From Sphaerotilus hippei (GTDB lineage Bacteria; Pseudomonadota; Gammaproteobacteria; Burkholderiales; Burkholderiaceae_C), in NCBI RefSeq assembly GCF_003201595.1, contig NZ_QJJS01000016.1, forward strand, positions 1-64,000: a stretch of 64,000 bases of DNA, given 5' to 3'. The position numbers were made by a program, and so were the translations under genes. Below are positions 5,866-20,056 of the stretch, piece after piece (position 1 is the stretch's first letter; each line of letters opens with the position of its first letter). Below the pieces are notes generated by a model that did no database searches, was not told the DNA's origin, and was given only the letters and a program-made list of their open reading frames with translations.

Positions 5866-5881
5866 TAGAAATCCATTTCCA
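5866..5881. promoter_or_regulatory. IolR-type operator in the iolC/importer divergent promoter region
   Basis: TAGAAATCCATTTCCA fits TGGAAA-N4-TTTCCA with one mismatch in 12 fixed positions. It is one of four such sites in this window, all in front of cyclitol genes. A TAAAGT element at 5901-5906 lies 19 nt downstream of the TTTCCA half, so the site may cover the -35 region of the importer promoter. Most likely binder is the RpiR-family protein encoded at 16979. The rest of the 5780-6075 gap shows no gene. Confidence 0.6.
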
Positions 5882-6075
5882 AAAAACTTCGATCTGAAGC
5901 TAAAGTGGCGTCGTGTTGAAAGCGCCTCGCAACGCTTCCAACCGACGGAAAGCAGAGCGGGCAGGACCTGCACGCTCTGGGTTTCAAACGGCCGGAGTCC
6001 GCCCAGGCGGATGGATCCACCCAGGGAGGCGTCGCGACGCCCCCGTTCCACACAGACTTTTAGGAGACAAAGATC

Positions 6076-7002
6076 ATGAAGAAGATGCTGTTGGTTGCCG
6101 CTGCTGCCGCCTCGCTGGTGTCCCCGCTGGCCCACGCCGAGAAGGTGGGTCTGGCCATGGCACAGCTCGACACGTTCCTGACGATCCTGAAGAACGGCAC
6201 GCTCGAGGCAGGCAAGAAGGCTGGCGCGACCGTGCAGGTGGAAGATGCCCAGAACGACGTGGGCAAGCAGCTCAGCCAGATCCAGAACCTGATCGCGCAG
6301 AAGGTCGACGCGATCATCGTCAACCCGGTCGACACCGACGCGACGCCCAAGATCACCAAGATGGTGACTGCCGCCGGCATCCCGCTGGTCTACGTGAACC
6401 GAAAGCCGGTCGACTTCGACAAGCTGCCGGCCGGTGTCGCGGTCGTGGCCTCCGACGAGAAGGTCTCGGGTACGGTGCAGACCCAGGAAGTCTGCCGCCT
6501 GCTCAAGGGCAAGGGCTCGGTGCTGGTGCTGATGGGCGAGCTGTCCAACGAAGCCGCACGCACCCGCACCAAGGACATCGAGGAAGTGGTCGCCACCAAG
6601 GAGTGCAGCGGCATCAAGATCGCTGACAAGCGTGAAGGCAAGTGGGATCGGACCCAGGGCCAGGACATCACGACCAACTGGCTGTCGACCGGTGTCAAGT
6701 TCGACGCGATCATCGCCAACAACGACGAGATGGCCATCGGCGCGATCAATGCGCTGAAAGCCGGCAAGAAGTGGACGTCGAGCTCGATCGTCGCGGGCAT
6801 CGATGCCACGCCGGACGCGCTGGCATCGATGAAGGCGGGCGACCTGAAGGTCACCGTGTTCCAGAACGCCGCCGGCCAGGGCGCTGGTGCGGTGGAGACG
6901 GCCCTGAAGCTGATCAAGAAGCAGCCGGTCGACCGTTTCGTGAACGTGCCTTTCGAGCTGGTGACCCCGGCCAACCTGAGCAAGTACAGCGGCAAGAACT
7001 GA
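6076..7002 (+). CDS. Sugar (probably inositol) ABC transporter substrate-binding protein
   Basis: A 308-residue periplasmic binding protein of the RbsB/IbpA type (Peripla_BP_4). Residues 1-21 are a signal peptide ending SPLAHA, with mature sequence starting [15 protein letters not shown] ribosome site AGGAGAC precedes the ATG. The binding-fold segments ending in [22 protein letters not shown] and [11 protein letters not shown] are typical. The gene is divergent from iolC and leads the importer operon, so inositol or a related cyclitol is the likely ligand; this comes from context, since specificity cannot be read from sequence. An intercistronic hairpin follows it. Confidence 0.9.
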
Positions 7003-7028
7003 TCTGGTTCCTGTCGTCGAGTCTGTCT

Positions 7029-7052
7029 GGAGCCACTCCCCGGAGTGGCTCC
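7029..7052 (+). terminator. Intercistronic hairpin after the binding-protein gene
   Basis: GGAGCCACTCC, a two-base spacer and GGAGTGGCTCC form a perfect 11-bp stem. There is no T run after it, so complete termination is unlikely. Hairpins at this place in binding-protein operons usually allow partial read-through or protect the upstream message, giving more binding protein than ATPase and permease. Confidence 0.6.
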
Positions 7053-7114
7053 AACCCCGCAGCGGCACGCCCCTCCCGTGCGTCGCTGCTGTAGGTGAGT
7101 GTCAAGGAAGCTCT

Positions 7115-8662
<1,548 letters not shown>

Positions 8663-8694
8663 GCGAGGCCCCCACAACTACCCGGAGACTTCCT

Positions 8695-9720
8695 ATGGCC
8701 ATCAGCAATCCATCCGTGGGCGCCCAGTCCATGACCTTCCGGCCGCCCAAGCGCAAGTGGCCGCCCGAACTCAGCATCTTCCTCGTGCTGGTCGGCATCA
8801 GCCTGTTCTTCGAGATGCTGGGCTGGTACATCAACGGCCAGAGCTTCCTGCTCAACCCCGAGAGACTGCAGATCATCATCCTGCAGATGTCGGTGATCGG
8901 CATCATCGCCATCGGCGTGAACCTGGTCATCATCACCAGTGGCATCGACCTGTCTTCAGGGTCGGTGGTGGCGGCTGCCGCGGTGGTCTCTGCCAGCCTG
9001 GCTCAGGTGTCGGACTTCCCGCGCGCCGTGTTCCCGGGGCTGACTGACCTGCCGGTGTTCTGGCCGCTGCTGGCCGGCATCACGACCGGGCTGGTGATCG
9101 GACTGATCAACGGCACGCTGATCGCGAAGACAGCCATTCCGCCCTTCATCGCGACGCTGGGCACGATGGTGGCAGCCCGCGGTTTCGCGAAGTGGTTCAC
9201 CGGCGGGATGCCCGTGTCGATGCTGACCGACGATTTCGCCTGGATCGGCTCGGGCCTGAATCCTGTGATCATCTTCCTGGTCGTCGCGCTGATCTTCCAC
9301 ATCGTGCTGCGCTACACCCGCTTCGGCAAGTTCTCCTATGCCATCGGCGCCAACCGCCAGGCGGCGCTGGTGTCGGGCATCAACGTCAATCGCCATCTGA
9401 TCTGGGTCTACACGATTGCCGGTCTGCTCAGCGGCATTGCCGGGTCGGTCACCGCAGCACGTGCCATCTCGGGCCAGTCGAGCATGGGCGTGATGTACGA
9501 GCTCGATGCGATCGCCGCGGTCGTCATCGGCGGTACCTCGCTGGTCGGTGGCGTGGGCCGCGTGACGGGCACGGTGATCGGCGTGCTGATCCTGGGCGTG
9601 ATGACCTCGGGCTTCACCTTCATCCGCATCGACGCCTACTACCAGGAGATGGTCAAGGGCGCGATCATCGTGGCCGCTGTGGTGGCCGACCAGTACCGCC
9701 AGCGCAATCGTCGCGGCTGA
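8695..9720 (+). CDS. Sugar ABC transporter permease (RbsC type)
   Basis: A 341-residue hydrophobic inner-membrane permease of the BPD_transp_2 (RbsC/IatP) family. The ATG at 8695 is chosen because GGAG lies 7 nt before it; a GTG at 8659 overlapping the ATPase stop is possible but less likely. Characteristic segments include GVNLVIITSGIDLSSGSVVA, NGTLIAKTAIPPFIATLGTM and AIAAVVIGGTSLVGGVGR, the last being the loop that contacts the ATPase. It is the third and last gene of the importer operon and is followed by a strong hairpin terminator. Confidence 0.93.
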   Translation: MAISNPSVGAQSMTFRPPKRKWPPELSIFLVLVGISLFFEMLGWYINGQSFLLNPERLQIIILQMSVIGIIAIGVNLVIITSGIDLSSGSVVAAAAVVSASLAQVSDFPRAVFPGLTDLPVFWPLLAGITTGLVIGLINGTLIAKTAIPPFIATLGTMVAARGFAKWFTGGMPVSMLTDDFAWIGSGLNPVIIFLVVALIFHIVLRYTRFGKFSYAIGANRQAALVSGINVNRHLIWVYTIAGLLSGIAGSVTAARAISGQSSMGVMYELDAIAAVVIGGTSLVGGVGRVTGTVIGVLILGVMTSGFTFIRIDAYYQEMVKGAIIVAAVVADQYRQRNRRG

Positions 9721-9749
9721 TCCGGTCCAGCCTCCAGCGTCAGGCCATA

Positions 9750-9778
9750 GGGCGCGCAGCGCAAGCTGCGCGCCCTTT
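9750..9778 (+). terminator. Rho-independent-like terminator of the importer operon
   Basis: GGGCGCGCAGC, tetraloop GCAA, then GCTGCGCGCCC and TTT. The stem is 11 bp and perfect with a GNRA loop; the T run is short. It lies 30 nt after the permease stop and may serve both directions, because the LacI gene converges from the right. Confidence 0.75.
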
Positions 9779-9875
9779 CCCATGGCGGTTGCTCCTCGTT
9801 CCGGAGCGAGAACGATGTTCCGTCTGGATCACCTCGGTGACCTGCGAGCGCTGGTGAACCGCACGCCCCGCCACT

Positions 9876-10931
9876 TCACATGTTCTCTGCTGTGTAGACC
9901 TCCACGGGCAGTGTCATCTGCACGCCGTGCGGTCGCATCTGCTGCGGCCGCTCCAGCGCATCGAGCATGGCCTGCACCACGGTGCGGGCGATGGCGGCCT
10001 GGGGCGTGCCCAGCACCAGGTCGATGACCCCGTCGGCCAGCGCGGCCCGGTGCTCGGGGGTGAGTTCGTTGCTCACCGTCACCACGTGGCCGAGCGCATG
10101 GCCGGGCGGCCGTTCGGCCTGCAGCGCCCGGATGGTGCCGGCCATGCCGCCACCGCCGGCGTCGTACAGGCCGGCCAGGTCCGGGTGGCGGCGCAGCAGG
10201 TCCAGCGTGGCCTCGTGGGCCAGCTGCGCGTCCTCCAGGTTGACCTGCGTCTCCAGCACGCGGAAGTCCGGCGCATGCTCGCGCAGATGGGCCCGGAAGC
10301 TCATCTCGCAGGCCTCGTGACCCAGGTAGCGGTGGCTGCCGACGAAGACGCCCACCGGCCCGGGCCGCCGGGCCAGGCGGCTGATCGCCCAGGCGGCGGT
10401 GCGGCCGCTCTTGCGTGGATCGACCCCCACGAAGCCGGCGCGCAGCGGCGCGCTCAGGTCCGACAGCAGCGCGAAGGTCGGGCAGCCCCGGCCGTGCAGG
10501 GCCTCCACGGCCGCGCTGACGTGCGGGTGGTCCACCGCCACCACGCCCAGCGCGTCGGTCTCCCGGCCCAGCTGCAGCATGCGCTCGGCGATCGCCGCCG
10601 GCTCGAGCTCGTCCATGTACTCGATGACCGCCACGCACGGGCTCGCGTGCTGGCTGGCCGCGGCCGACAGCTCGCGCCCGAAGGCGCGGTAGAAGGCCTC
10701 ATGGCGCCGCAGCAGGCAGAACCCCAGCGTGCGCACTTCCCGCTCGCTGCGCTCCGTCAGCCGGGCGCGCATCAGCGGGGCCCCGTGGTAGCCGATGCGC
10801 TCGGCCGCCTCGATCACCCGCATGGCCGTCGCCGAGCGCACCGGCAGGCGGCTGTTGAGCACCCGGTCGACGGTGGCGGTGCTGACCCCGGCCGCCTCGG
10901 CCACCGCCGCCAGCGTCGGGCGGCGGCTCAT
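9876..10931 (-). CDS. LacI-family transcriptional regulator divergent from mocD-like gene
   Basis: A 351-residue LacI-type regulator. The N-terminal helix-turn-helix and hinge read TLAAVAEAAGVSTATVDRVLN. The remainder is a periplasmic-binding-protein-like effector domain with GVVAVDHPHVSAAVEAL and the VFVGSHRYLGHEAC segment that often contacts cyclitol or sugar ligands. It is transcribed away from the desaturase/Rieske genes, with the 187-nt gap holding a promoter, 20-nt-spaced direct repeats and an IolR-type site. I infer that it controls the mocDEF-like operon in response to a cyclitol, or itself. No truncation is seen. Confidence 0.88.
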   Translation of the reverse strand: MSRRPTLAAVAEAAGVSTATVDRVLNSRLPVRSATAMRVIEAAERIGYHGAPLMRARLTERSEREVRTLGFCLLRRHEAFYRAFGRELSAAASQHASPCVAVIEYMDELEPAAIAERMLQLGRETDALGVVAVDHPHVSAAVEALHGRGCPTFALLSDLSAPLRAGFVGVDPRKSGRTAAWAISRLARRPGPVGVFVGSHRYLGHEACEMSFRAHLREHAPDFRVLETQVNLEDAQLAHEATLDLLRRHPDLAGLYDAGGGGMAGTIRALQAERPPGHALGHVVTVSNELTPEHRAALADGVIDLVLGTPQAAIARTVVQAMLDALERPQQMRPHGVQMTLPVEVYTAENM

Positions 10932-11000
10932 CGGACCGGCTCCCGAGGGTTGTCACCCGGGAGGCGTGATGGAAATGCAATGCTGCTGCGCCGCATGGAT

Positions 11001-11033
11001 GATGGATTCTGATATCAAATGATGGAATCTGAT
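11001..11033. repeat. Two 13-bp direct repeats, 20 nt apart, next to a promoter
   Basis: GATGGATTCTGAT (11001-11013) and GATGGAATCTGAT (11021-11033) differ at one base and are spaced two helical turns apart, so a protein could bind both on one face. They abut the -35 element of the mocD promoter and lie upstream of the LacI gene on the other strand. They are candidates for the LacI operator or an activator site. Confidence 0.45.
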
Positions 11034-11061
11034 TGTCCATCAAGGACGAGCTGACTAGCAT
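11033..11061 (+). promoter_or_regulatory. Probable sigma-70 promoter for the mocDEF-like operon
   Basis: TTGTCC (11033-11038) and TAGCAT (11056-11061) are separated by 17 nt; each matches four of six consensus positions. The expected start of transcription, near 11068, is just upstream of the IolR-type operator at 11078, which would then block initiation or early elongation. Confidence 0.45.
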
Positions 11062-11077
11062 CCGCCTCATTCCGGTG

Positions 11078-11093
11078 TGGAAATTTTTTTCCA
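11078..11093. promoter_or_regulatory. IolR-type operator upstream of mocD-like gene
   Basis: TGGAAATTTTTTTCCA matches TGGAAA-N4-TTTCCA in all fixed positions (also GGAA-N6-TTCC). Its presence in the leader argues that the real mocD start is downstream, at 11119 or 11137, not at the in-frame GTG at 11077. Confidence 0.65.
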
Positions 11094-11118
11094 GTCGACC
11101 GAATACTCGAAAACCCTG

Positions 11119-12198
11119 ATGAGCACGGACGCAGACATGAACAGTCAGACGATGAGGGGCCCGGCGCCCAGCCTGGACGACTACCGCCTGATCGGTGGCG
11201 CCGGCGAGCGCGCCCAGGCGGCCGGCCTGGTGAGCGCCGAGTGGTACCGGTGCCCGGTGCCGCGTGCGGTGATGAAGGAGCTGATGAAGCGCAGCGACGG
11301 CCCGGCGATCCGCGACACGCTGCTGTGGTTCGCGCTGGTCATCGCGGCGGGGGTGGCGATGTGGTTCACCCGCGAGTCGCCCTGGTTCGCGCTGACCTTC
11401 TTCGTCTACGCGACGCTGTACTGCGGCCCGGCCGATTCACGCTGGCACGAGTCCAGCCACGGCACGCCGTTCAAGACCCGCTGGATGAGCGATGCGCTCT
11501 ACCAGGTGGCCAGCTTCATGGTGCTGCGCCGCGCCACCCGGTGGCGCTGGAGCCACACCCGCCACCACACCGACACGCTGGTGACCGGGCGGGACCCCGA
11601 GGTGGCCGTGCCCGTGCCGTCCGACATCGTCGGCCTGCTGCTGAACCTCTTCGCGCTCAGGAGCGGTCCGAAGGAGCTGGGCCGGGTGCTGATGAACGCC
11701 GCCAGCCGCATGGACGAGGAGGAGAAGACCTTCGTGCCCGAGATGGAGTGGCACAAGGTGCGGCGCGAGGCCTGCCTGTGGGTGCTGATCTACGCGGTGG
11801 TGATCGGCTCGGCGCTGTACTTCCAGAGCTGGCTGCCGCTGTTCTACATCGGCCTGCCCTCGTTCGCCGGCGCCTGGCTCTACAGCTTCTTCGGCCTGAC
11901 CCAGCACGCCGGCCTGCCCGAGAACGTGCTCGACCACCGCCAGAACTGCCGCACGGTCCACATGAACCCGGTGTTCCGTTTTCTGTACTGGAACATGAAC
12001 TACCACATCGAGCACCACATGTTCCCGATGGTGCCCTACCACGCGCTGCCTCGGCTGCACGAGGTCATCCGGGCCGACTGCCCGCCGCCCTATCAGGGCA
12101 TGGCCGAAGCCTACGCCGAGATCATTCCTGCGATCCTTCGACAGAGCACCGAGCCGACCTGGCACGTGGTGCGTCCGATCCCCCGGCCCCAGGCCTGA
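11119..12198 (+). CDS. Fatty-acid-desaturase-fold di-iron oxygenase, MocD-like
   Basis: A membrane di-iron protein of 359 residues from the ATG at 11119 (a second ATG at 11137 is possible; neither has a strong ribosome site). The three histidine clusters of the desaturase/hydroxylase superfamily are present: WHESSH, HTRHH and NYHIEHHMFP, interleaved with hydrophobic segments. The gene order desaturase-Rieske ferredoxin-ferredoxin reductase is that of mocD-mocE-mocF from rhizobial rhizopine catabolism, where the trio removes the O-methyl group of 3-O-methyl-scyllo-inosamine. With inositol genes on both sides, a cyclitol O-demethylase is the best reading. A true lipid desaturase is the main alternative. 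Confidence 0.8.
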   Translation: MSTDADMNSQTMRGPAPSLDDYRLIGGAGERAQAAGLVSAEWYRCPVPRAVMKELMKRSDGPAIRDTLLWFALVIAAGVAMWFTRESPWFALTFFVYATLYCGPADSRWHESSHGTPFKTRWMSDALYQVASFMVLRRATRWRWSHTRHHTDTLVTGRDPEVAVPVPSDIVGLLLNLFALRSGPKELGRVLMNAASRMDEEEKTFVPEMEWHKVRREACLWVLIYAVVIGSALYFQSWLPLFYIGLPSFAGAWLYSFFGLTQHAGLPENVLDHRQNCRTVHMNPVFRFLYWNMNYHIEHHMFPMVPYHALPRLHEVIRADCPPPYQGMAEAYAEIIPAILRQSTEPTWHVVRPIPRPQA

Positions 12199-12238
12199 TC
12201 CCTTCAACAGACTGCCCAGCAGCACCCAGGAGACCGAC

Positions 12239-12547
12239 ATGAGCGAATGGATTTCCGTCTGCGATTTCGACGACATCGACGACGAGGACATGGTGCGTTT
12301 CGATCACGCCGGCCACACCTATGCGGTCTACCGCGTCGAGGAGCGTGTGCATGCGACCGACGGCCTGTGCACCCACGAGAAGATCCACCTGTGCGACGGC
12401 CTGGTGATGGGCCATGTCGTCGAGTGCCCGAAGCACAACGGCCGCTTCGACATCCGTGACGGCCGGGCGCTGGGCGCACCGGTGTGCGTCAACCTGAAGA
12501 CCTACCCGGCCAAGGTCGAGGGTGGTCGTGTGCTGATCCAGATCTGA
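12239..12547 (+). CDS. Rieske-type [2Fe-2S] ferredoxin, MocE-like
   Basis: A 102-residue stand-alone Rieske ferredoxin. The cluster ligands are CTH at about residues 42-44 and CPKH at about 61-64, the C-x-H ... C-x2-H pattern. It is small, soluble and complete, and follows the oxygenase gene by 40 nt with an AGGAGAC ribosome site. In MocE-like systems it carries electrons from the flavin reductase to the oxygenase. No catalytic Rieske-oxygenase domain is attached, so it is an electron carrier only. Confidence 0.9.
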   Translation: MSEWISVCDFDDIDDEDMVRFDHAGHTYAVYRVEERVHATDGLCTHEKIHLCDGLVMGHVVECPKHNGRFDIRDGRALGAPVCVNLKTYPAKVEGGRVLIQI

Positions 12548-12560
12548 GGGCGAGGCGCTC

Positions 12561-13793
12561 ATGCATCAGATCCGAGCCATGGTGATCGTCGGTGCCGGCC
12601 ATGCCGGTGGCCGTGCCGGTCAGGCCCTGCGTGAACTCGGCTGGAAGGGGCCGATCGTGATGATCGGTGCCGAGACGCACCTGCCCTACGAACGCCCGCC
12701 GCTGTCCAAGGGGCTGCTGACGGGGGCGCAGGACGCGGTGTCCTGCGCGCTGCGCCCGGCCGCCGACCACGACCGTGACCTGATCACCCACTGCGTGGCC
12801 TGGGTCGATCGCATCGACACCCGGCGTCGCGAGGTGGTGCTCGACGGCGGGCGCCGCATCGCCTACGAGGCGCTGCTGCTGGCCACCGGCGGGCACCTGC
12901 GGCGCCTGTCGGTGCCCGGCGCCGGCGGGGCCGGTCTGCTCGGGCTGCGCACGCTCGACGATGCGGCCTCGCTGCAGCCGCGCCTGACGCCCGGGGCCCG
13001 CCTGGTCATCGTCGGCGGCGGTTTCATCGGCCTGGAGGTGGCCGCGTCCGCCCGCCAGCGCGGCTGCGAGGTCACGCTGATCGAGGGTGCGGCCAGTCTG
13101 CTCGGCCGGGCCGTGCCGCCCGCCATCGGCGCGCGGGTGCTGGCCCTGCACCGGGCGCATGGCGTCGACGTGCGCCTGCAGGCCAGCCCGACGGCCTTCG
13201 GCACCGACGGCCAGGGCCACCAGACCGTGCAGCTGGCCGACGGCAGCGTGCTGACGGCCGACACGGTCGTGGTGGGCGTGGGCATCGTGCCCGCCACCGA
13301 GCTGGCCGAAGCCGCCGGCCTGGCGGTGGCGCGTGGCATCCGGGTCGACGCGGGCCTGCGCACCAGCGATGCCCACGTGTTCGCCGCCGGGGACGTGGCC
13401 GAGTTTCCCAGCCCGCTCAGCGGCGAGCCGATCCGCCAGGAAACCTGGCACAACGCCGAGACCCAGGCCCGCGTGGCCGCGGCCAACATGCTCGGCGGCC
13501 ACGAGACCTGCAGCCAGCTGCCCTGGTTCTGGTCCGACCAGTACGACCACCAGCTGCAGGTCAGCGGCGAGCCGGCGCTGGGCGTGCGCCGCGTCAGCCG
13601 CCTGCTGGGCGACGAGGCCCAGATCGATTTCCACCTCGACGGCGACGGGCGCCTGGTCGGCGCCAGCGGTTTCGGGCCGACCACCGTGGTCGCCCGCGAG
13701 CTCAAGCTGGCCCGGCTGCTGGTCGAGCGCCGCCGCCAGCCGGCGGCCGAAGCCCTGGCCGACCCGGGCGTCAAGCTCAAGTCGCTGGCCTGA
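12561..13793 (+). CDS. FAD-dependent ferredoxin reductase, MocF-like
   Basis: A 410-residue NAD(P)H:ferredoxin oxidoreductase of the rhodocoxin/putidaredoxin-reductase class. The FAD dinucleotide fold VIVGAGHAGGRAGQALRE is at the N-terminus with the class motif YERPPLSKGLL, the NAD-binding motif VIVGGGFIGLEVAASAR is near residue 150, and the second FAD motif is SDAHVFAAGDVAEFP. The C-terminal reductase domain includes WFWSDQYDHQLQ. It is separated from the Rieske gene by 13 nt. It completes a three-part oxygenase system: reductase to ferredoxin to di-iron oxygenase. Confidence 0.9.
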   Translation: MHQIRAMVIVGAGHAGGRAGQALRELGWKGPIVMIGAETHLPYERPPLSKGLLTGAQDAVSCALRPAADHDRDLITHCVAWVDRIDTRRREVVLDGGRRIAYEALLLATGGHLRRLSVPGAGGAGLLGLRTLDDAASLQPRLTPGARLVIVGGGFIGLEVAASARQRGCEVTLIEGAASLLGRAVPPAIGARVLALHRAHGVDVRLQASPTAFGTDGQGHQTVQLADGSVLTADTVVVGVGIVPATELAEAAGLAVARGIRVDAGLRTSDAHVFAAGDVAEFPSPLSGEPIRQETWHNAETQARVAAANMLGGHETCSQLPWFWSDQYDHQLQVSGEPALGVRRVSRLLGDEAQIDFHLDGDGRLVGASGFGPTTVVARELKLARLLVERRRQPAAEALADPGVKLKSLA

Positions 13794-13827
13794 TCACCCC
13801 CGTGATTTCCCCCTTTCCGGAGACCCC

Positions 13828-14172
13828 ATGAAAACAGCCCACCGCCCGACGATCGCCGACCTGCGTGCCCTGAAGGGCCGCCGGCAGCTCAGCATGCTGC
13901 GGGTCGAGATGGGGGCCGGCGCCGGCTGCGATGCGCAGTACCTGTTCGCCAGCGACGTGCTGGGCAGCAACCGCGGCCACGTGCCCCGCCACGCCAAGGT
14001 CTACCGCGACTTCGCGGCCGAACACGAACGCCTGCAGGCCGAGCGCGTGGCGGCCTTCCGGGAGTACCAGCAGGACGTGGCGGGTGGTGCCTACCCGCAG
14101 GCCGGGCACATGGTGGGCGTGAGCCCCGAGGTGCTCGGCGAGTTCCGGCAGTTCCTCGACCAGGCGCACTGA
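13828..14172 (+). CDS. PanB-like hydroxymethyltransferase, internally deleted
   Basis: A 114-residue protein whose ends match ketopantoate hydroxymethyltransferase (PanB) while the middle is missing. Residues 7-20 (PTIADLRALKGRRQ) resemble the PanB N-terminus. From about residue 27 the GAGAGCDAQYLFASDVLG and RGHVPRHAKVYRDF segments correspond to the last third of PanB (GAGNVTDGQILV, GGHIPKFAKNFL). PanB is about 264 residues, so some 150 are absent, including the metal-binding Asp and Glu positions. The reading frame is intact and has a GGAG ribosome site. A normal PanB activity is excluded. It may be a decayed partner that once linked methylene-tetrahydrofolate to the demethylation genes. Family assignment is from my own recall of PanB. 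Confidence 0.65.
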   Translation: MKTAHRPTIADLRALKGRRQLSMLRVEMGAGAGCDAQYLFASDVLGSNRGHVPRHAKVYRDFAAEHERLQAERVAAFREYQQDVAGGAYPQAGHMVGVSPEVLGEFRQFLDQAH

Positions 14173-14242
14173 GGTCCGGCCGGCCCGGGCCTCGCCGCCC
14201 GCGACCGACCGACCGCGCTCCTCCTCTCCCGCAGGGTGGCTC

Positions 14243-14266
14243 ACCCGGTGCGCCTGCGCACCGGGT
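14243..14266 (+). terminator. Perfect hairpin between the PanB-like and purU-like genes
   Basis: ACCCGGTGCGC, a CT loop and GCGCACCGGGT form an 11-bp perfect stem in the 152-nt gap. No T run follows, so it may attenuate or protect the message and not terminate. The rest of the gap holds a short GACC tandem run and no gene. Confidence 0.5.
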
Positions 14267-14324
14267 CGGGCATCGCCTTGCCTCCACGTCCAGACCTCCG
14301 CCCCGACACCGACGAGATCACCCC

Positions 14325-14954
14325 ATGGCCAGCACCTACATCCTCACGCTCTCCTGCCCCGACCAGCCCGGCATCGTGCATGGCGTCTCCGGGCTGCTGT
14401 TCCAGCATGGCGCCAACATCGAGGAGGTCGCCCAGTACAACGACCAGCAGACCGGCCTGTTCTTCATGCGCGTGCAGTTCGCCTGCGGCCAGGTCAGCAT
14501 GGAGCAGCTCGACGCCGCGCTGCAGGAGCTGGCCGCCGTCTGGACCATGACGGTCGAGCTGCACCGCGCCGACCAGCGCATGCCGGTGGTCATCATGGTG
14601 AGCCAGCAGGGCCACTGCCTCAACGACCTGCTGTTCCGCTGCAAGAGCGGGCTGCTGCCGGTGGACATCAAGGCCATCGTCTCCAACCACCGCGACTTCT
14701 ACCAGCTCGCGGCCAGCTACAACATCCCCTTCCACCAGAAGCTGATCGGCGCGACGGCCCACTACGTGACGGCCGACCTCGACGAGGGCCCGATCATCGA
14801 GCAGGACGTGGCCCGGGTGGACCACAGCCGCACCGTCGACGACCTGACCGCGCTGGGCCGCGACACCGAGAGCCAGGTGCTGGCGCGCGCCGTCAAGTGG
14901 CACAGCGAGCGCCGCGTGCTGCTCAACGGGCACAAGACCGTGATCTTCAAGTGA
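14325..14954 (+). CDS. purU: PurU-like formyltetrahydrofolate deformylase with an internal deletion
   Basis: A 209-residue relative of PurU, which hydrolyses 10-formyl-tetrahydrofolate to formate and tetrahydrofolate; typical length is about 280. The N-terminal ACT domain is present (LTLSCPDQPGIVHGVSGLLF) and so is the start of the formyltransferase fold to YNIPFHQ. The sequence then jumps directly to KLIGATAHYVTADLDEGPII. About 76 residues are absent, including the segment that normally contains INIHHSFLP with the catalytic Asn and His. The Asp in TADLDEGP remains. The frame is open throughout, so this is an in-frame loss. Enzyme activity is therefore doubtful. Next to an O-demethylase, PurU would fit one-carbon disposal. 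Confidence 0.8.
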   Translation: MASTYILTLSCPDQPGIVHGVSGLLFQHGANIEEVAQYNDQQTGLFFMRVQFACGQVSMEQLDAALQELAAVWTMTVELHRADQRMPVVIMVSQQGHCLNDLLFRCKSGLLPVDIKAIVSNHRDFYQLAASYNIPFHQKLIGATAHYVTADLDEGPIIEQDVARVDHSRTVDDLTALGRDTESQVLARAVKWHSERRVLLNGHKTVIFK

Positions 14955-14968
14955 GCATCGATCCGTCC

Positions 14969-15970
14969 ATGTCAACCCCGCCGCGGGCGCTGCAGGTCGG
15001 CATCAACATCGACGGCGTGCTGGTGCACGACGGCCTGGCCACGCCGCAGCCGGCGACCCGCTTCGCCTGGATCCGCCACAGCGGGGCCTTCGACTACATC
15101 GAGAAGAACATCGATCCGGGCGAGGACTTCGCGCCGTACTTCGACCTGGTCGAGCGCCACGGCGTGCCCATCCGGGTCTTCGGCGGCATCTTCTGCGCCG
15201 GCGTGGACGAGCCGCGCATGCGCTGGGGCCTGGCCACCGGCGGACGGCTCGGCGCGCCGGTGTTCAACATGCAGCTCTACGCCCGCCATGCCGATGGCCA
15301 TGCGCTCGGCGACGAGGAGGTGGCCCGCTTCTTCCTCGAGGCGATGGAGCATGGCAGCCGCAGCGGCTGCCTGCCCAGCCTGGAGGTGCACGTGGACATG
15401 TGGAGCGAGTCGTTCCGGCGCGTCGAGCGGGTGGCCGAGCGGCTGGCGCGCTCGAACGTGCGGCTGCGCCTGACGCTGGACCACTCGCACCTGATCTTCA
15501 AGATCGGCCACGCCGCGGAGCTGGCCCTGAGCGGCCTGGCCGACGAGCCCGACGGTGCCCGCGCGCTGCTGGCGCCCGATGGCGCCGCCACCTTCTACCG
15601 CCAGTGGCTGCAGGAGGGCTGGGTCGCCCACGCCCACGCCCGCAGCGTGGCGCCCGGCGTGAGCCACAACGCCGCGGCGAACCGCCGCCGCGGCCTGCCG
15701 GGCCGGGCGATCCAGTATCCGCTGATCGAGCCGCCGCCCGGCAGCTTCCACGCCGGCTGGCAGGCCGAACGCCTCCAGCCCTGGAAGGACGCGGTGCTCG
15801 ACCTGCTGCGCTGCATGCGGGCGCAGCCGCAGCACGCGCCGCAGCGCATCAGCTGCGAGTTCATCCCCTTCGCCGACTACGGTGGCGGGGCCCGCTACTC
15901 GATCTGGGACAACAACCTGGCCTGCGCACGCTGGCTGCGCGAGCAGTGGGGCGCGCTGCAGGCCGGCTGA
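14969..15970 (+). CDS. Sugar-phosphate isomerase/epimerase-like TIM-barrel protein, unknown role
   Basis: A 333-residue protein that I cannot assign to a named enzyme. It resembles the xylose-isomerase-like TIM-barrel group: metal-site-like segments occur at SLEVHVDMWSES, LTLDHSHLIFKIG and AHAHARSV, and the C-terminus has ISCEFIPFADYGGG. The ATG at 14969 is used; a GTG at 14951 would overlap the purU stop by 4 nt, giving coupled translation, and is also plausible. It is the last gene of the mocDEF-like run. A role in isomerising the demethylated cyclitol or a downstream keto-sugar is inference from position. Confidence 0.6.
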   Translation: MSTPPRALQVGINIDGVLVHDGLATPQPATRFAWIRHSGAFDYIEKNIDPGEDFAPYFDLVERHGVPIRVFGGIFCAGVDEPRMRWGLATGGRLGAPVFNMQLYARHADGHALGDEEVARFFLEAMEHGSRSGCLPSLEVHVDMWSESFRRVERVAERLARSNVRLRLTLDHSHLIFKIGHAAELALSGLADEPDGARALLAPDGAATFYRQWLQEGWVAHAHARSVAPGVSHNAAANRRRGLPGRAIQYPLIEPPPGSFHAGWQAERLQPWKDAVLDLLRCMRAQPQHAPQRISCEFIPFADYGGGARYSIWDNNLACARWLREQWGALQAG

Positions 15971-15996
15971 GACCGCGCTGGGCTAGAGTGAGCGGC

Positions 15997-16797
15997 ATGA
16001 CCGACGACCTGCCCATCCTCTGGCGCGACGAGCACCTCATCGCCATCCACAAGCCGGCGGGCTGGCTGGTGCACCGCACCGGGCTGGATGCGCAGGAGAC
16101 CCGCTTCGTCGTGCAGACGCTGCGTGGCCAGCTGGGCGGGCGGCATGTGCATCCGGTCCACCGGCTCGACAAGGGCACCTGCGGGGTGTTGCTGCTGGCC
16201 CTGCACCCGGAGGCCGCCAGCAGGATGGCGCGGGCCTTCGAGGCGCAGGCGGTGCACAAGACCTACCTGGCGCTGGTGCGCGGCTGGGCGCCGGTCAGCG
16301 CCGACGTGGACCACGCGCTGCGGCCCGACGACGCCCCCGCCGACGCGCCGGCCCAGCCGGCCCGCACCCGCTTTCGGCGCCTGGCGACGCTGGAGATCGC
16401 CGAGTCGGCCGACGGTCGTTTCCCGACCACGCGGGCGTCCCTGGTCGAGGCGCAGCCGCACAGCGGCCGGCGCCACCAGATCCGCCGCCACCTCAAGCAC
16501 CTGGCCCATCCCATCCTGGGCGACGCGACCCACGGCAAGGGACCGCTGAACCGCTGGTGGGCCGAACGGCTCGGGCGGCAACGCCTGTGGCTGCACGCCT
16601 GCACGCTGGGCTTCCGCCATCCCTGGAGTGGCGCCGAGGTGCTGCTGCACAGCGGCCTGGGCTGGCAGGCGGGCACCGGGCTGTCGGCGTCGGCGGAGGC
16701 GCCGGACGATCTGCAGCACTGGCAGGCGCTGACACGGCAGCTGCCACCGTGTGCGGAGGAGGGCGCCTCGCCGGCCTCGGGGTGGGAGACGCCGTGA
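15997..16797 (+). CDS. truC: tRNA pseudouridine synthase TruC-like (RluA family)
   Basis: A 266-residue RluA-family pseudouridine synthase. The catalytic motif reads HRLDKGTCGVLL, with the invariant Asp; Cys replaces the more common Ser after Thr. Further family segments are AIHKPAGWLVHR at the N-terminus, KTYLALVRG and the LVEAQPHSGRRHQIRRHLKHL stretch (key residues HSGRRHQIR). Length and single-domain form without an S4 domain fit TruC, which modifies U65 of certain tRNAs. It is a housekeeping gene placed inside the cyclitol island, 26 nt after the TIM-barrel gene. Another small RluA paralogue cannot be excluded. Confidence 0.8.
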   Translation: MTDDLPILWRDEHLIAIHKPAGWLVHRTGLDAQETRFVVQTLRGQLGGRHVHPVHRLDKGTCGVLLLALHPEAASRMARAFEAQAVHKTYLALVRGWAPVSADVDHALRPDDAPADAPAQPARTRFRRLATLEIAESADGRFPTTRASLVEAQPHSGRRHQIRRHLKHLAHPILGDATHGKGPLNRWWAERLGRQRLWLHACTLGFRHPWSGAEVLLHSGLGWQAGTGLSASAEAPDDLQHWQALTRQLPPCAEEGASPASGWETP

Positions 16798-16879
16798 AGG
16801 CCCTGTCGCCCCACCCCTCTCACGCGGTGGCCGCTGGTGCCGTCCGGCCTGCGGGCCCCGTGGCCGGGACCCGCACAGA

Positions 16880-16895
16880 TAAAAATCAATTTCCA
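16880..16895. promoter_or_regulatory. Imperfect IolR-type operator upstream of rpiR gene
   Basis: TAAAAATCAATTTCCA matches the shared pattern in 10 of 12 fixed positions, with a perfect right half. It lies 83 nt before the regulator's start codon, which suggests autoregulation. The surrounding stretch (16870-16970) is AT-rich compared with its neighbours, as expected of a promoter region. Confidence 0.5.
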
Positions 16896-16978
16896 ATGTC
16901 AATGCACGGGGAAATCCTTGTTCTGTTGTTTGCGAACATCCGGGAACATGGCGACTCTCGACATCAATCAGGACCCAC

Positions 16979-17863
16979 ATGACCGCAGCGCAGACCCAGA
17001 TGACGGTCGAGCAGTTCCTCCAGCGTGTGTCGCAGGAGTACGAGGGACTGAGCAAGCAGCTCAAGCTGATCGCCCGACATGTCGAGTCCCACCGGGATCA
17101 CCTGGGCCTCGAAGGCATCCAGGAGGTGGCCGCCCAGTGTGGTGTGCAGCCCTCGGCCGTGGTGCGTTTTGCCAAGCACTTCGGCTATTCGGGCTACATC
17201 GAGCTGCAGCGCATCTTCCGTGACGGCCTGTCGCAGCAGATCGCGCCCAGCCGCAACTACCAGTCGCGCATCCGCGACGTGATCGAGTCCGGCGACGGTC
17301 CGCTGTCGTCGACGCAGATCGCCCACGAGTTCCTGGCCGGCAGCATCGCGGGCATGCAGGAGCTGCAGGGCTCGCTCGATGAGCCCGTGTTCCAGCGCGC
17401 GATCGACCTGCTCGAGCAGGCCGAGACGATCTGGATCGCCGGGTCGCGCCGCTCCTTCCCGGTGGCCGTCTACCTCGACTACGCGCTCCAGCACACCGAC
17501 AAGCGCATCGGCCTGATCCACTCGCTGGGCAGCATGCACGAGGGCCAGATGCGCTCGGTGCGTCCGGGCGACGTGCTGGTGGCCGTGTCCTTCGCGCCTT
17601 ATGCCGAGGAGACGGTGCTGGTCGCGCAGCAGGCGGTGCAGCGGGGCGCCCAGCTGATCGCGATCACCGACAGCCGCATGAGCCCGCTGTCGCGCGAGGC
17701 CGAGGCCTGCCTGATCGTGCAGGACAACGCCACCTTCGGCTTCCGTTCGCTGACCGCGACGATGGGCCTGGCGCAGAGCCTGTTCATCGCGCTGACCTAC
17801 CGGCTGGAGCTGCCTTACCGCCCGACCAGCCGGCGCACCGTGGTGCGCGGGCCTGGCGGCTGA
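16979..17863 (+). CDS. MurR/RpiR-family transcriptional regulator, probable IolR
   Basis: A 294-residue RpiR-type regulator. The N-terminal helix-turn-helix domain (about residues 10-85) includes LEGIQEVAAQCGVQPSAVVRFAKHFGY. A SIS sugar-isomerase domain follows (about 130-270), with IWIAGSRRSFPVAVYLDYAL and VAVSFAPYAEETV. RpiR-type proteins named IolR repress inositol genes in Sinorhizobium and Salmonella, responding to a pathway intermediate bound in the SIS domain. The gene lies in the middle of the cyclitol island and is preceded by a variant of the shared operator, making it the best candidate for the island-wide repressor. It converges with the LacI gene, with only 3 nt between the stops. 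Confidence 0.88.
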   Translation: MTAAQTQMTVEQFLQRVSQEYEGLSKQLKLIARHVESHRDHLGLEGIQEVAAQCGVQPSAVVRFAKHFGYSGYIELQRIFRDGLSQQIAPSRNYQSRIRDVIESGDGPLSSTQIAHEFLAGSIAGMQELQGSLDEPVFQRAIDLLEQAETIWIAGSRRSFPVAVYLDYALQHTDKRIGLIHSLGSMHEGQMRSVRPGDVLVAVSFAPYAEETVLVAQQAVQRGAQLIAITDSRMSPLSREAEACLIVQDNATFGFRSLTATMGLAQSLFIALTYRLELPYRPTSRRTVVRGPGG

Positions 17864-17866
17864 GCC

Positions 17867-18964
17867 TCAGGCGCCTGCCTCGTGATCGAGGTAGGCGTGG
17901 CGCCCCAGGTTCTCGGCGCAGAACAGCCGGAACTCGTTGGGCTCGCCGGGTGCGGGCTGCTCGACGTAGCCGGTGGCGTGCAGCAGGTGGTGCAGGCTGG
18001 TGGCGACCTGGCCGTCGGGATCCTGGTCGATGACCAGGTCCATCAGGCCCAGGCGCACCAGGTTGCGGTGCTCGTCGCTGATCTCGTGGCCGATCCAGAC
18101 CGGCCGATGGGCCGGCGTCAGGCGCTGCAGCACCGCGGCGATGCCGGCCGAGCCCGCGCCGCTGTGATACAGGCCGACCAGCGGCACCTGGTCACGCTGC
18201 GCCTGGGCGAGGGCCTGGCGCAGCTCGATCTGGCAGCGGTCGGGGTCGTCCAGGCAGGTGACCGGGGCGCTGCAGGCCAGCTGCGGATGGCGTTCGGCCA
18301 GCACCTCGGTGGCGCCCTGCATGCGCTCCACGTGGGCGCGGTAGTCCAGCGAATTGGTCAGCAGCAGCACCCGCCCCGGACCCCGCGCGAGCCGGCCGAT
18401 GAAGTGGCCGGCGGTGCGCCCGGCGTGGTGGTTGTCGATGCCGGCGTAGTGCAGCCCGGGCACGTCGCCGATGCCGCTCATCAGCGTGGCCACCGGCACC
18501 CCGCGCTCGATCTGGCTGCGCAGCGCCTCGCGCACGACCTCGCTGTCGTGCAGCGCGACGATCAGGCCGTCGCGGCGGTGGCCGGGCCGGGTCAGCGCAG
18601 CCTGCACCCGAGCGACATCGTCGGCGTCGACATGGTGGCGGTGGATCAGGATGCGGGGATCGAGCGTCTGCGCCGAACGCTGCAGCGCCCGGTCGAGGCG
18701 GCGGAAGTAGGGCGTCGGGCTGTCGGCCAGCACCACGTCGAAGCGGGTCAGGCCATGGCGCGGGTCGGGCAGCAGGCGCGGCACGCCCAGCTGCTTGGCC
18801 GCCGCCACCACCCGGGCGCGGGTGGCGGCCGACACGCTGCCCCGTTCGTTGAGCACCCGGTTGACGGTGGCGGTGCTGACCCCGGCGGCGGCGGCGATCT
18901 CGATGAAACGGGCGCTGCGCTTGCGCCGGGGCGGCCCCGGGGGGCGGGAGGATGCGTCGCTCAT
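17867..18964 (-). CDS. LacI-family transcriptional regulator, second copy
   Basis: A 365-residue LacI-type regulator with helix-turn-helix RFIEIAAAAGVSTATVNRVLNERG after a basic N-terminal tail. The effector domain has FDVVLADSPTPYFRRLDRAL and LIVALHDSEVV segments, and resembles the LacI protein at 9876 in size and layout. Both are closer to the RbsR/CatR style of solute-binding regulators than to LacI itself. It is transcribed after the IolI/MocC-like gene with an 18-nt gap, so the two form an operon. I infer it senses a cyclitol or keto-inositol. Confidence 0.85.
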   Translation of the reverse strand: MSDASSRPPGPPRRKRSARFIEIAAAAGVSTATVNRVLNERGSVSAATRARVVAAAKQLGVPRLLPDPRHGLTRFDVVLADSPTPYFRRLDRALQRSAQTLDPRILIHRHHVDADDVARVQAALTRPGHRRDGLIVALHDSEVVREALRSQIERGVPVATLMSGIGDVPGLHYAGIDNHHAGRTAGHFIGRLARGPGRVLLLTNSLDYRAHVERMQGATEVLAERHPQLACSAPVTCLDDPDRCQIELRQALAQAQRDQVPLVGLYHSGAGSAGIAAVLQRLTPAHRPVWIGHEISDEHRNLVRLGLMDLVIDQDPDGQVATSLHHLLHATGYVEQPAPGEPNEFRLFCAENLGRHAYLDHEAGA

Positions 18965-18982
18965 CCCGCCTTCATGCCACGA

Positions 18983-19822
18983 TCAGGCCGACGTGGCAAG
19001 CGCGGCCACGCGCTGGCGCAGGTGGGCCATGCTGGTGGCGAGCTGTGCCTCGATGTCGGTCGCCGCGGCGATCTGCTCGGCGAAGGGCTCGAAGGAGACG
19101 CAGCCGGTGTAGCCGGCATCCAGCAGCGTGCGCAGCTGCGCCACGTTGCCCAGGCGGTCGGCGCTGCCCACCAGCACGCGGTGGCCGTCGCGCATGTCGG
19201 GCACGGTGACGGCCGAGTCCTCGACGCCGGAGATGTGGATCAGGCCGGTCCACTCGGGGAAGAACAGGCCCTCGCCGGCGAGGTGGTGGTGGAAGGTGTC
19301 GTGCACCAGGCGGAAGGTCGCGTCCGCGCCGATCTCCTCGAACGCACGCACCGCCTGCGACTTGCGGCGCACCGCACATTCCTCGAAGCCCAGCGGCTCG
19401 ACCAGACCGACGATGCCGTGGTCGGCCAGGATGGGCTGGAGCGACTTCAGCGCATGCACCAGCGCGGCGTGGCGCGCGTCGGCCGAACGCGCGTCGGCGC
19501 GGCTGTTGGTCGGGCACAGCACCAGGGCCTCGGCACCGCAGTCGCGGGCATAACGGGCCAGCGCGACGGCCTCGGCCTCACGCTCGGCGGTGAACTGATC
19601 GAAGCGCTGCAGCGCGTTGATCGAGCGGATCACCAGGCCGTGCGCCCGGGCGATCGTACCGATGTCGCCGGCCGGCACGCCGTCGCCGATCTCGATGCCC
19701 GGCAGGTCGTTGCGGATCTCGATCGCGCCCACGCCCAGGCGGCGCGTCATCGCGGCGAAGTCGGCGAAGGACAGGCGCGGAACGGCCATGCGGTTGAGGG
19801 CGAAGCGGATGTCCTGGCTCAT
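18983..19822 (-). CDS. IolI/MocC-like inosose isomerase (TIM barrel)
   Basis: A 279-residue AP-endonuclease-2-like TIM barrel related to IolI (2-keto-myo-inositol isomerase) and rhizobial MocC. Shared landmarks are IEIRNDLPG, RSINALQRF (an NAL motif also seen in IolI), VEPLGFEECAVR, LVHDTFHHHL, HISGVED and SFEPF; the Glu, Asp, His and Glu in these segments form the metal site. A ribosome site GGAG precedes the ATG. In the pathway it would interconvert keto-inositol isomers, feeding 2-keto-myo-inositol to IolE. It is divergent from iolG. Whether it acts on inosose or on a rhizopine-derived ketone cannot be told from sequence. Confidence 0.82.
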   Translation of the reverse strand: MSQDIRFALNRMAVPRLSFADFAAMTRRLGVGAIEIRNDLPGIEIGDGVPAGDIGTIARAHGLVIRSINALQRFDQFTAEREAEAVALARYARDCGAEALVLCPTNSRADARSADARHAALVHALKSLQPILADHGIVGLVEPLGFEECAVRRKSQAVRAFEEIGADATFRLVHDTFHHHLAGEGLFFPEWTGLIHISGVEDSAVTVPDMRDGHRVLVGSADRLGNVAQLRTLLDAGYTGCVSFEPFAEQIAAATDIEAQLATSMAHLRQRVAALATSA

Positions 19823-20040
19823 GGGGGGTCTCCTGGCTCGAGGCCGTTGGTGTTGGGGGGGCAGCGGGGGTGAACGGTCGTCACTCTAGGCAAGCCCGTG
19901 GCCGACGGCAGCAGCAGATTTGACTCTTTATGATCAAGATTCGAAATGCGCCCCGGACGGTGATTCCGGCTGATTTCATGAGGTCTTTTCCCCATGGAGA
20001 CGGGGTCGATGCGCAATGAAAATTCCATGGAAAACACTGA

Positions 20041-20056
20041 TGGAAAATTATTTCCA
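20041..20056. promoter_or_regulatory. IolR-type operator upstream of iolG
   Basis: TGGAAAATTATTTCCA is an exact match to TGGAAA-N4-TTTCCA. Its right half also forms the -35 region of the promoter described next, so binding would exclude RNA polymerase. A second palindrome, TTCCATGGAA at 20023-20032, lies directly upstream and may widen the site. Confidence 0.7.

What the first reader, a model, noticed from the sequence alone, without database searches (positions are those of the whole stretch)
5866..20056. One operator motif, TGGAAA-N4-TTTCCA, recurs before four cyclitol transcription units
Sites: 5866-5881 (iolC/importer, 11 of 12 fixed positions), 11078-11093 (mocD-like, exact), 16880-16895 (rpiR gene, 10 of 12), 20041-20056 (iolG, exact). 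All lie in intergenic regions, and the iolG copy overlaps the -35 element. The core GGAA-N6-TTCC is, to my recollection, the motif proposed for the RpiR-type IolR of Sinorhizobium meliloti. This ties inositol import, the iol operon, the O-demethylase genes and the dehydrogenases into one regulon, and would extend IolR control to mocDEF-like genes.
Basis: partly seen in the sequence, partly recalled or inferred. Interest (0 to 1): 0.75.

Follow-up and report, generated by a model that had tools for sequence, protein, structure and literature searches.

The report
Inositol repressor regulon including mocDEF genes
A 16-base DNA switch, very probably read by an inositol-sensing repressor encoded in the same cluster, sits before the main inositol-use operons of this Sphaerotilus/Leptothrix-type bacterium and also before genes thought to strip methyl groups from plant inositols; the switch is of a known kind, and its use on the demethylase genes did not turn up in the papers searched.

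Summary
Observation confirmed: the four sites are at the stated coordinates with the stated matches, all intergenic (0.19 expected, 4 found, 0 of 100 shuffles reach 4). Genome-wide the 16-mer has two exact copies, both here; the bare core GGAA-N6-TTCC is not specific (48 places).
The motif is a conserved operator, consensus TRGAAA-N4-TTTCYA: in 17 of 17 relatives' iolR loci the best matrix hit lies before iolR, iolC or an iolG gene, 6 of these held out. It follows the RpiR-type IolR, not the cluster's two LacI regulators: 9 genomes lack both and keep it. A Caulobacter IolR with the same core is published (PMC2597717), so the kind is known.
The mocD copy is real but lineage-limited: 4 of 6 mocD-bearing genomes of the genus, plus Curvibacter, an unnamed beta-proteobacterium and, weaker, Malikia; 74 of 80 named mocD loci lack it. 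In some relatives IolR-type sites lie between divergent iolR and mocF. An unlinked isomerase/IolG-like unit is a further candidate target. Binding, inducer and demethylase substrate are untested.

The parts
5866..5881 (.). IolR operator 1, TAGAAATCCATTTCCA, in the gap shared by the divergent iolC operon and importer
   Evidence: matrix score 25.9; a site with 1 mismatch or fewer to TRGAAAN4TTTCYA in the iolC/importer gap of 6 of 6 genus genomes whose iolC stretch was fetched
11078..11093 (.). IolR operator 2, TGGAAATTTTTTTCCA, before mocD
   Evidence: score 31.2; exact in G151 and G153, 1 mismatch in G154, degenerate in G150, absent in G156
16880..16895 (.). IolR operator 3 (weak), TAAAAATCAATTTCCA, before iolR; possible autoregulation
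   Evidence: score 22.5; 1-mismatch sites before iolR in 8 of 11 genus stretches incl. own and a S. sulfidivorans plasmid, four of the eight with low scores (8-14); none in G058, G155, G156
20041..20056 (.). IolR operator 4, TGGAAAATTATTTCCA, before iolG; overlaps the likely -35
   Evidence: score 31.2; 1 mismatch or fewer before iolG1 in 4 of 10 genus stretches (own, G058, G150, G156), 2 mismatches with score 22.1 in G151, degenerate (12-14) in the other five
116..925 (-). iolB, 5-deoxy-glucuronate isomerase
   Evidence: TIGR04378 over cut-off
940..1869 (-). iolE, inosose dehydratase
   Evidence: TIGR04379 over cut-off
1926..3809 (-). iolD
   Evidence: TIGR04377 over cut-off
3827..5779 (-). 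iolC kinase/aldolase fusion
   Evidence: NF047869 over cut-off
6076..7002 (+). sugar-type ABC importer, binding protein
   Evidence: RbsB/MglB-like, below family cut-offs
7115..8662 (+). importer ATPase
8695..9720 (+). importer permease
9876..10931 (-). lacI1, LacI-family regulator divergent from mocD; possible second regulator of mocDEF
   Evidence: LacI-family matches below cut-offs; conserved blocks in the lacI1-mocD gap besides the IolR site
11119..12198 (+). mocD-like desaturase-fold oxygenase
   Evidence: PF00487
12239..12547 (+). mocE-like Rieske ferredoxin
   Evidence: TIGR02377 152.5 bits, cut-off 136.15
12561..13793 (+). mocF-like ferredoxin reductase
   Evidence: PF07992, PF14759
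13828..14172 (+). PanB-like short protein, 114 aa, large in-frame internal deletion relative to G150
14325..14954 (+). PurU-like formyltetrahydrofolate deformylase, 209 aa, in-frame internal deletion relative to G150
14951..15970 (+). TIM1, protein without a Pfam or NCBIfam match that recurs beside mocF (TIM-barrel label is mine)
16979..17863 (+). iolR, RpiR-type HTH + SIS repressor
   Evidence: PF01418 and PF01380 over cut-off
17867..18964 (-). lacI2, LacI-family regulator
   Evidence: PF00356, PF13407
18983..19822 (-). TIM2, TIM-barrel isomerase-like, divergent from iolG
   Evidence: PF01261
20138..21133 (+). iolG1, inositol 2-dehydrogenase
   Evidence: TIGR04380 397.6 bits, cut-off 355
21232..22275 (+). 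iolG2, second inositol-dehydrogenase-like gene
   Evidence: TIGR04380 298.9 bits, below cut-off 355

Best explanation
The four palindromes are operators of the RpiR-type repressor IolR encoded at 16979-17863. Without inositol, IolR sits on them and blocks the divergent iolCDEB/importer promoters, iolG, its own gene and the mocDEF operon. When inositol is imported and broken down, a phosphorylated intermediate (by analogy DKGP, made by IolC) binds the SIS domain and releases IolR. mocDEF, probably an O-demethylase that turns methylated cyclitols into inositols, is brought into the same circuit in this lineage, probably with the neighbouring LacI1 as a second, substrate-specific control. Shown here: the sites, their specificity, their conservation and their co-occurrence with IolR. 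Inferred: binding, repression, effector, LacI1's part and the demethylase substrate.
For: Four sites against 0.19 expected. A matrix from 24 relatives' iol sites, with no own and no mocD site, ranks the four window sites 1-4 of 64 kb (31.2, 31.2, 25.9, 22.5; next 7.8), with 0-2 equals in 2 Mb of random sequence modelled on these gaps. Top matrix hit before iolR, iolC or an iolG gene (iolG2 in G139) in 17 of 17 relatives' loci; 6 of the 17 held out. Exact consensus in 14 of 18 IolR+ against 40 of 132 IolR- genomes, Fisher p 1.5e-4. Nine IolR+ genomes lack both LacI orthologs; 8 of them have the exact consensus at an iol promoter and the ninth (G118) a 1-mismatch site. Within the genus: iolC/importer gap 6 of 6, mocD gap 4 of 6 at 1 mismatch or fewer. 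Helix VQPS-x-x-VRFAK shared with an Asticcacaulis iol-cluster RpiR (38% identity) whose iolG-iolR gap holds GGAA-N6-TTCC. In Caulobacter, deleting this kind of IolR derepressed idhA, ibpA and iolC promoters (PMC2597717, passages).
Against: No binding or expression data for this organism. The iolR site is weak, and 3 of 11 genus stretches have none before iolR; 5 of 10 have only a degenerate copy before iolG1. At 1 mismatch the genome-wide count does not set IolR+ apart from IolR- members of the genus: IolR- G152, G157, G158 have 8, 4, 5 (controls 4, 2, 0), the ten IolR+ 6 to 14 (controls 0 to 5). One of the 14 exact-consensus IolR+ genomes (G039) has its only exact copy on a contig (C42) that I did not inspect. 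74 of 80 named mocD loci lack a mocD site of score 15 or more; G074, G039 and G156 have IolR and mocD but no mocD site. No correction for kinship. In E. aridi, iolC was not induced in an iolR mutant (PMC8877191, passages).
Confidence: 0.82

Rival explanations
1. One of the two LacI-family regulators of the cluster (lacI1, lacI2), not the RpiR protein, binds the palindromes. LacI-type regulators named IolR for inositol exist elsewhere.
For: Two LacI genes lie next to the sites; PMC4052901 lists 7 LacI-type inositol groups (passage).
Against: 9 of 18 IolR+ genomes have no match to LacI1 or LacI2 at E 1e-20, yet 8 of the 9 have the exact consensus at an iol promoter and the ninth a 1-mismatch site. 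The middle of the motif is A/T-rich, not the central CG that I recall for LacI operators. A different, non-orthologous LacI in those genomes was not ruled out.
Confidence: 0.07
2. The core iol sites are IolR operators, but the mocD copy is not used: mocDEF is controlled by LacI1 alone and the palindrome there is chance or a relic.
For: lacI1 or lacI2 relatives are divergent from mocD in many loci; the lacI1-mocD gap has other conserved blocks; G150 has only a degenerate copy and G156 none; 74 of 80 named loci have none. L169 and L170, which do, show no clear IolR ortholog in the stretch held.
Against: Sites 25-62 bp before mocD in own, G151, G153, G154, Curvibacter (25.6), L169 (23.0) and Malikia (19.2), each expected less than 0.001 times per gap, on a background taken from the own gaps and so too low for the AT-richer ones; the arms match between own, G151 and G153 while much of the surrounding gap differs.
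Confidence: 0.2
3. The recurrence is chance in AT-richer intergenic DNA of a 70% G+C genome.
For: The four gaps are 52-61% G+C against 70% for the window; IolR- genomes also have scattered exact copies (40 of 132).
Against: 0-2 hits at these scores in 2 Mb of sequence with the composition of these gaps; backwards-read control 0 in this genome; conservation across genera.
Confidence: 0.02

Closest known systems
RpiR-type IolR regulon of Caulobacter crescentus and other alpha-proteobacteria (PMC2597717, passages read)
   Same: RpiR/SIS regulator beside iol genes; GGAA-N6-TTCC palindromes before iolC, idhA (the iolG equivalent) and an ABC inositol importer
   Different: Beta-proteobacteria; outer bases fixed and middle AT-rich (TRGAAA-N4-TTTCYA against GGAANATNCGTTCCA); targets include mocDEF and perhaps a second isomerase/dehydrogenase unit
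Sinorhizobium/Ensifer IolR (Kohler 2011, seen only as cited in PMC8877191)
   Same: RpiR-like repressor of inositol catabolism; putative sites before idhA, iolY, iolR, iolC; autoregulation; DKGP proposed as inducer
   Different: iolR is transcribed within iolYRCDEB there; no mocDEF target named in the passages read
mocDEF rhizopine genes of S. meliloti L5-30 (PMC10107442, passages read)
   Same: mocD, mocE, mocF as a unit; the mocD promoter is inducible there by a cyclitol (scyllo-inosamine)
   Different: There MocR with proposed AAAGYGGYTCT boxes; here no such box in the mocD gap at 2 mismatches or fewer, but an IolR operator and a divergent LacI
LacI-mocDEF-panB locus of S. meliloti ml56 pSymB (L207)
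   Same: Divergent LacI, mocD, mocE, mocF, PanB-like gene
   Different: No TRGAAAN4TTTCYA at 1 mismatch or fewer and no GGAA-N6-TTCC in the 13-kb stretch

Membership tests
RpiR-type IolR regulon | Regulator with RpiR HTH and SIS domain | tested here: met
   PF01418 and PF01380 over cut-off
RpiR-type IolR regulon | Regulator gene linked to iol genes, also in relatives | tested here: met
RpiR-type IolR regulon | GGAA-N6-TTCC palindromes before iolC, iolG and importer | tested here: met
   Exact core at iolG; the iolC/importer site has one changed base (AGAA-N6-TTCC); A and G are equally common at that position among the 24 training sites from relatives
RpiR-type IolR regulon | Orthology to the characterised Caulobacter or Sinorhizobium IolR | tested here: inconclusive
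   Those proteins were not compared; 38% identity to the iol-cluster RpiR of Asticcacaulis, same family as Caulobacter
RpiR-type IolR regulon | Derepression in an iolR deletion or with a mutated operator | not testable with these tools
   needs strains
RpiR-type IolR regulon | Release by an inositol-pathway intermediate (DKGP) | not testable with these tools
   needs purified protein and ligand
LacI-type inositol regulator (rival) | Motif depends on the LacI gene being present | tested here: not met
   9 IolR+ genomes without LacI1 and LacI2 orthologs keep the motif, 8 exactly and 1 with one mismatch
mocDEF O-demethylase genes | MocE-family ferredoxin with desaturase-fold MocD and reductase MocF | tested here: met
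   TIGR02377 over cut-off; PF00487; PF07992/PF14759
mocDEF O-demethylase genes | Control by MocR through moc-boxes | tested here: not met
   20 hits at 2 mismatches or fewer in the window against 22.2 expected; none in the mocD gap. A MocR-type gene elsewhere in the genome was not sought
mocDEF O-demethylase genes | Activity on an O-methyl cyclitol | not testable with these tools
   needs enzyme assay

The most novel reading that the evidence does not exclude
In the Sphaerotilus/Leptothrix lineage and some other Burkholderiales, IolR has repeatedly captured the mocDEF demethylase genes, either by an operator before mocD or by one shared between divergent iolR and mocF, making one inositol-sensing circuit for plain and methylated cyclitols. 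The circuit would reach further, to an unlinked isomerase/IolG-like unit (G000:C4, about 184 kb).
Probability: 0.6. Interest if true: 0.5.

Novelty: new member of a known kind. Interest (0 to 1): 0.4.

Why it matters
It carries a known alpha-proteobacterial inositol circuit into beta-proteobacteria with a sharper operator, and it gives a testable case of regulatory rewiring: mocDEF under proposed MocR control in a rhizobium, beside a LacI gene in Burkholderia and on S. meliloti pSymB, and with an IolR operator here. It predicts that mocDEF here serves methylated inositols such as pinitol rather than rhizopine only. Pinitol was the most concentrated component of the Mimosa root exudate that raised iol genes in Burkholderia and Rhizobium, and mocDEF genes in the Rhizobium (PMC5789663, passages).

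Tried and rejected
Chance in AT-richer gaps: rejected for the set. LacI1 or LacI2 as reader of the motif: rejected as the main reading. Bare core GGAA-N6-TTCC as a regulon marker: rejected, 48 places. One-mismatch counts per genome as a marker of IolR: not useful inside the genus. Burkholderia hits such as CGGAAATCCATTTCCA near mocF: in the two loci whose frames I listed (L128, L172) they lie inside the mocF frame, and nine aligned loci keep that sequence; not counted as operators. Early impression that the mocD site is private to this genome (0 of 5 mocD upstream stretches from 3 other genomes): overturned when genus members and named loci were added, but those misses stand. Moc-boxes: none in the mocD gap. 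Azospirillum, S. meliloti ml56 and Salmonella plasmid stretches: no motif at 1 mismatch or fewer and no exact core. Literature: seven paper searches, of which I saw listings (25 of 442 papers, 10 of 11) and passages of six papers; none of what I saw reports IolR control of mocDEF. PMC5132102 (mocDEF in Pseudomonas syringae, passages) was not used further. Structure prediction was not used.
Full report
Observation. They are the only places in 64 kb with two mismatches or fewer, against 0.19 expected. All lie between genes. The iolG copy supplies a likely -35 (TTTCCA, 18 bases, TATAGT, where shuffles give 0.6 such hits). The site at 11078 lies 25 bases before the ATG that I took as the mocD start, downstream of a possible TTGTCC-N17-TAGCAT promoter that I read by eye.

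Specificity in the genome. The window lies in a 4.43-Mb genome of 46 contigs. The 16-mer with one mismatch or fewer occurs at 7 places, 3 of them here; both exact copies are here; the backwards-read control gives none. Of the other four, three lie in frames that I read as fis-, nuoF- and nnrS-like genes and one is intergenic in a polysaccharide-type region. With the consensus from relatives, TRGAAA-N4-TTTCYA, at one mismatch or fewer there are 11 places, including all four window sites, and control 0. The seven outside the window are those four and three more: one in open coding frames (C18), one just before a tatA-like gene (C7) and one before an isomerase gene (C4). At this looseness the count does not mark IolR: genus members without it (G152, G157, G158) have 8, 4 and 5 places, those with it 6 to 14. 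The bare core GGAA-N6-TTCC is not informative: 48 places, control 7.

Gene content. iolB, iolE, iolD, the iolC fusion and iolG1 pass their NCBIfam cut-offs; iolG2 does not (298.9 bits, cut-off 355); the importer is of the RbsB/MglB type and passes no specific cut-off. MocE passes TIGR02377. IolR has an RpiR HTH and a SIS domain. The genome has three HTH_6 matches over the cut-off and a weak fourth; only this one lies in the iol cluster.

Conservation and identity of the regulator. IolR orthologs (54-100% identity) occur in 18 of 150 genomes drawn from the family; the next matches in that draw are at 36% or less. The exact consensus occurs in 14 of these 18 and in 40 of the other 132 (Fisher p 1.5e-4; kinship not corrected; the only exact copy of G039 is on a contig that I did not inspect). 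I fetched 5-20 kb around each of the 17 other orthologs. In 17 of 17 the best hit of a position matrix lies before iolR, iolC or an iolG gene (iolG2 in G139). The matrix used 24 sites from 16 genomes of the genus and family, counted in both orientations, so 11 of the 17 loci contain a training site; the held-out six (G039, G066, G074, G082, G096, G118) have top scores of 19.2 to 23.9. Orthologs of both LacI regulators are missing from 9 of the 18 (G003, G004, G031, G058, G069, G118, G136, G139, G148). Eight of these have the exact consensus at an iol promoter and G118 has a 1-mismatch site before iolC. This is the main evidence that the RpiR protein, not a LacI protein, reads the motif. An Asticcacaulis iol-cluster RpiR (38% identity) shares VQPS-x-x-VRFAK and has GGAACAAATATTCC between iolG and iolR; an Azospirillum cluster showed no exact core in the stretch held.

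Site by site within the genus (best hit in 350 bp upstream, in stretches that I had fetched). iolC/importer: 6 of 6 at one mismatch or fewer. mocD: 4 of 6. iolR: 8 of 11, four of the eight with low scores (8.0 to 13.6), none in G058, G155, G156. iolG1: 4 of 10 (own, G058, G150, G156), 22.1 with two mismatches in G151, and only degenerate copies (12.1 to 13.9) in G153, G154, G159, G160 and the S. sulfidivorans plasmid. The iolC and several iolR and iolG sites of G058, G150, G151, G153 and G156 were in the training set; the mocD sites were not.

The mocD site. Six of 13 genus genomes have mocD. The gap carries the operator exactly in own, G151 and G153, with one mismatch in G154, degenerate in G150 (CGGAAAGTTTTTTCCG, 16.5), and not in G156. 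Six of the 80 score 15 or more within 400 bp: L118 (= G151), L151 (= G153), L169, L170, L178 and L196; L196 (Cytophagales, 300 bp away) is probably chance. Seven of the 80 have an IolR ortholog at 45% or more in the stretch, and 2 of these 7 have the mocD site; L169 and L170 have the site but no clear IolR in the stretch. Where mocF is divergent from iolR the shared gap carries matrix hits in L118, L144 and L163, in G150 and G153 and a weak one in G039 (17.6); those of G150, G151 and G153 were training sites, the others not. L120, also with divergent mocF and iolR, has none of score 18 or more there. L119 has a hit of 18.1 before mocF but no iolR in its stretch. The own lacI1-mocD gap aligned with G151, G153 and G154 shows further conserved blocks that could be LacI1 sites. 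Dual control by LacI1 and IolR, with IolR the lineage-limited layer, is my reading.

A further target. The C4 site (TGAAAATGGGTTTCTA, score 14.7, best of its 14-kb stretch) lies 180 bp before a hydroxypyruvate-isomerase-like TIM-barrel gene, which matches TIGR03234 below cut-off, followed by an IolG-like dehydrogenase (300.2 bits, cut-off 355). Six of 13 genus genomes have the isomerase. Its upstream stretch carries the best matrix hit of the fetched 15 kb in G150 (25.2), G151 (23.4 and 16.2), G153 (17.6 and 15.7) and G155 (24.1 and 19.4); in G158, where no IolR was found but which is only 68% complete, the best hit of 4.4 kb scores -4.1.

Literature. PMC2597717 (passages): deletion of the Caulobacter RpiR-type IolR derepressed three promoters; the motif was mutated and assayed (the outcome was not in the passages that I saw) and was found in S. 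meliloti and other alpha-proteobacteria. PMC8877191 (passages) cites Kohler 2011 for DKGP as effector and finds iolR autoregulation in Ensifer aridi, but no induction of iolC in the iolR mutant, which does not fit a pure repressor. PMC10107442 (passages) shows a rhizopine-inducible mocD promoter in S. meliloti with proposed MocR boxes. PMC5789663 (passages) reports pinitol as the most concentrated exudate component, iol genes up in Burkholderia and Rhizobium, and mocDEF up in the Rhizobium. Nothing seen in the seven searches reports IolR control of mocDEF.

Verdict. A conserved IolR operator set: a known kind in a new lineage, with a well supported but lineage-limited extension to mocDEF. Binding, inducer and substrate remain inferred.

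Noticed in passing
window 13828-14172 and 14325-14954: The PanB-like and PurU-like genes behind mocF each carry an in-frame internal deletion relative to G150 (about 459 and 219 bp by the blastn pieces). Two one-carbon genes shortened side by side; real loss or assembly artefact cannot be told here.
   Followed up: partly
L242:3880-5973 (G000:C4, about 183.9-186.0 kb): Isomerase plus IolG-like dehydrogenase unit with a weak own IolR site, and stronger, in three of four genomes tandem, sites in G150, G151, G153 and G155.
   Followed up: partly
L204 (Sphaerotilus sulfidivorans plasmid pSna507_unt10): An iolR/iolG cluster on a 303-kb plasmid, with motif copies before further TIM-barrel and Gfo/Idh/MocA genes; similar sets in L223 and L225, and a partly similar one in L224.
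   Followed up: no
window 10931-11118: Blocks conserved between own, G151, G153 and G154 upstream of the mocD operator, possibly LacI1 sites.
   Followed up: no
L207 (S. meliloti ml56 pSymB): LacI-mocDEF-PanB-like locus without an IolR motif; a PanB-like gene beside mocDEF suggests handling of the released one-carbon unit.
   Followed up: no
window 14951-15970: 339-residue protein without any Pfam or NCBIfam match (E up to 0.001) that recurs beside mocF in relatives.
   Followed up: no
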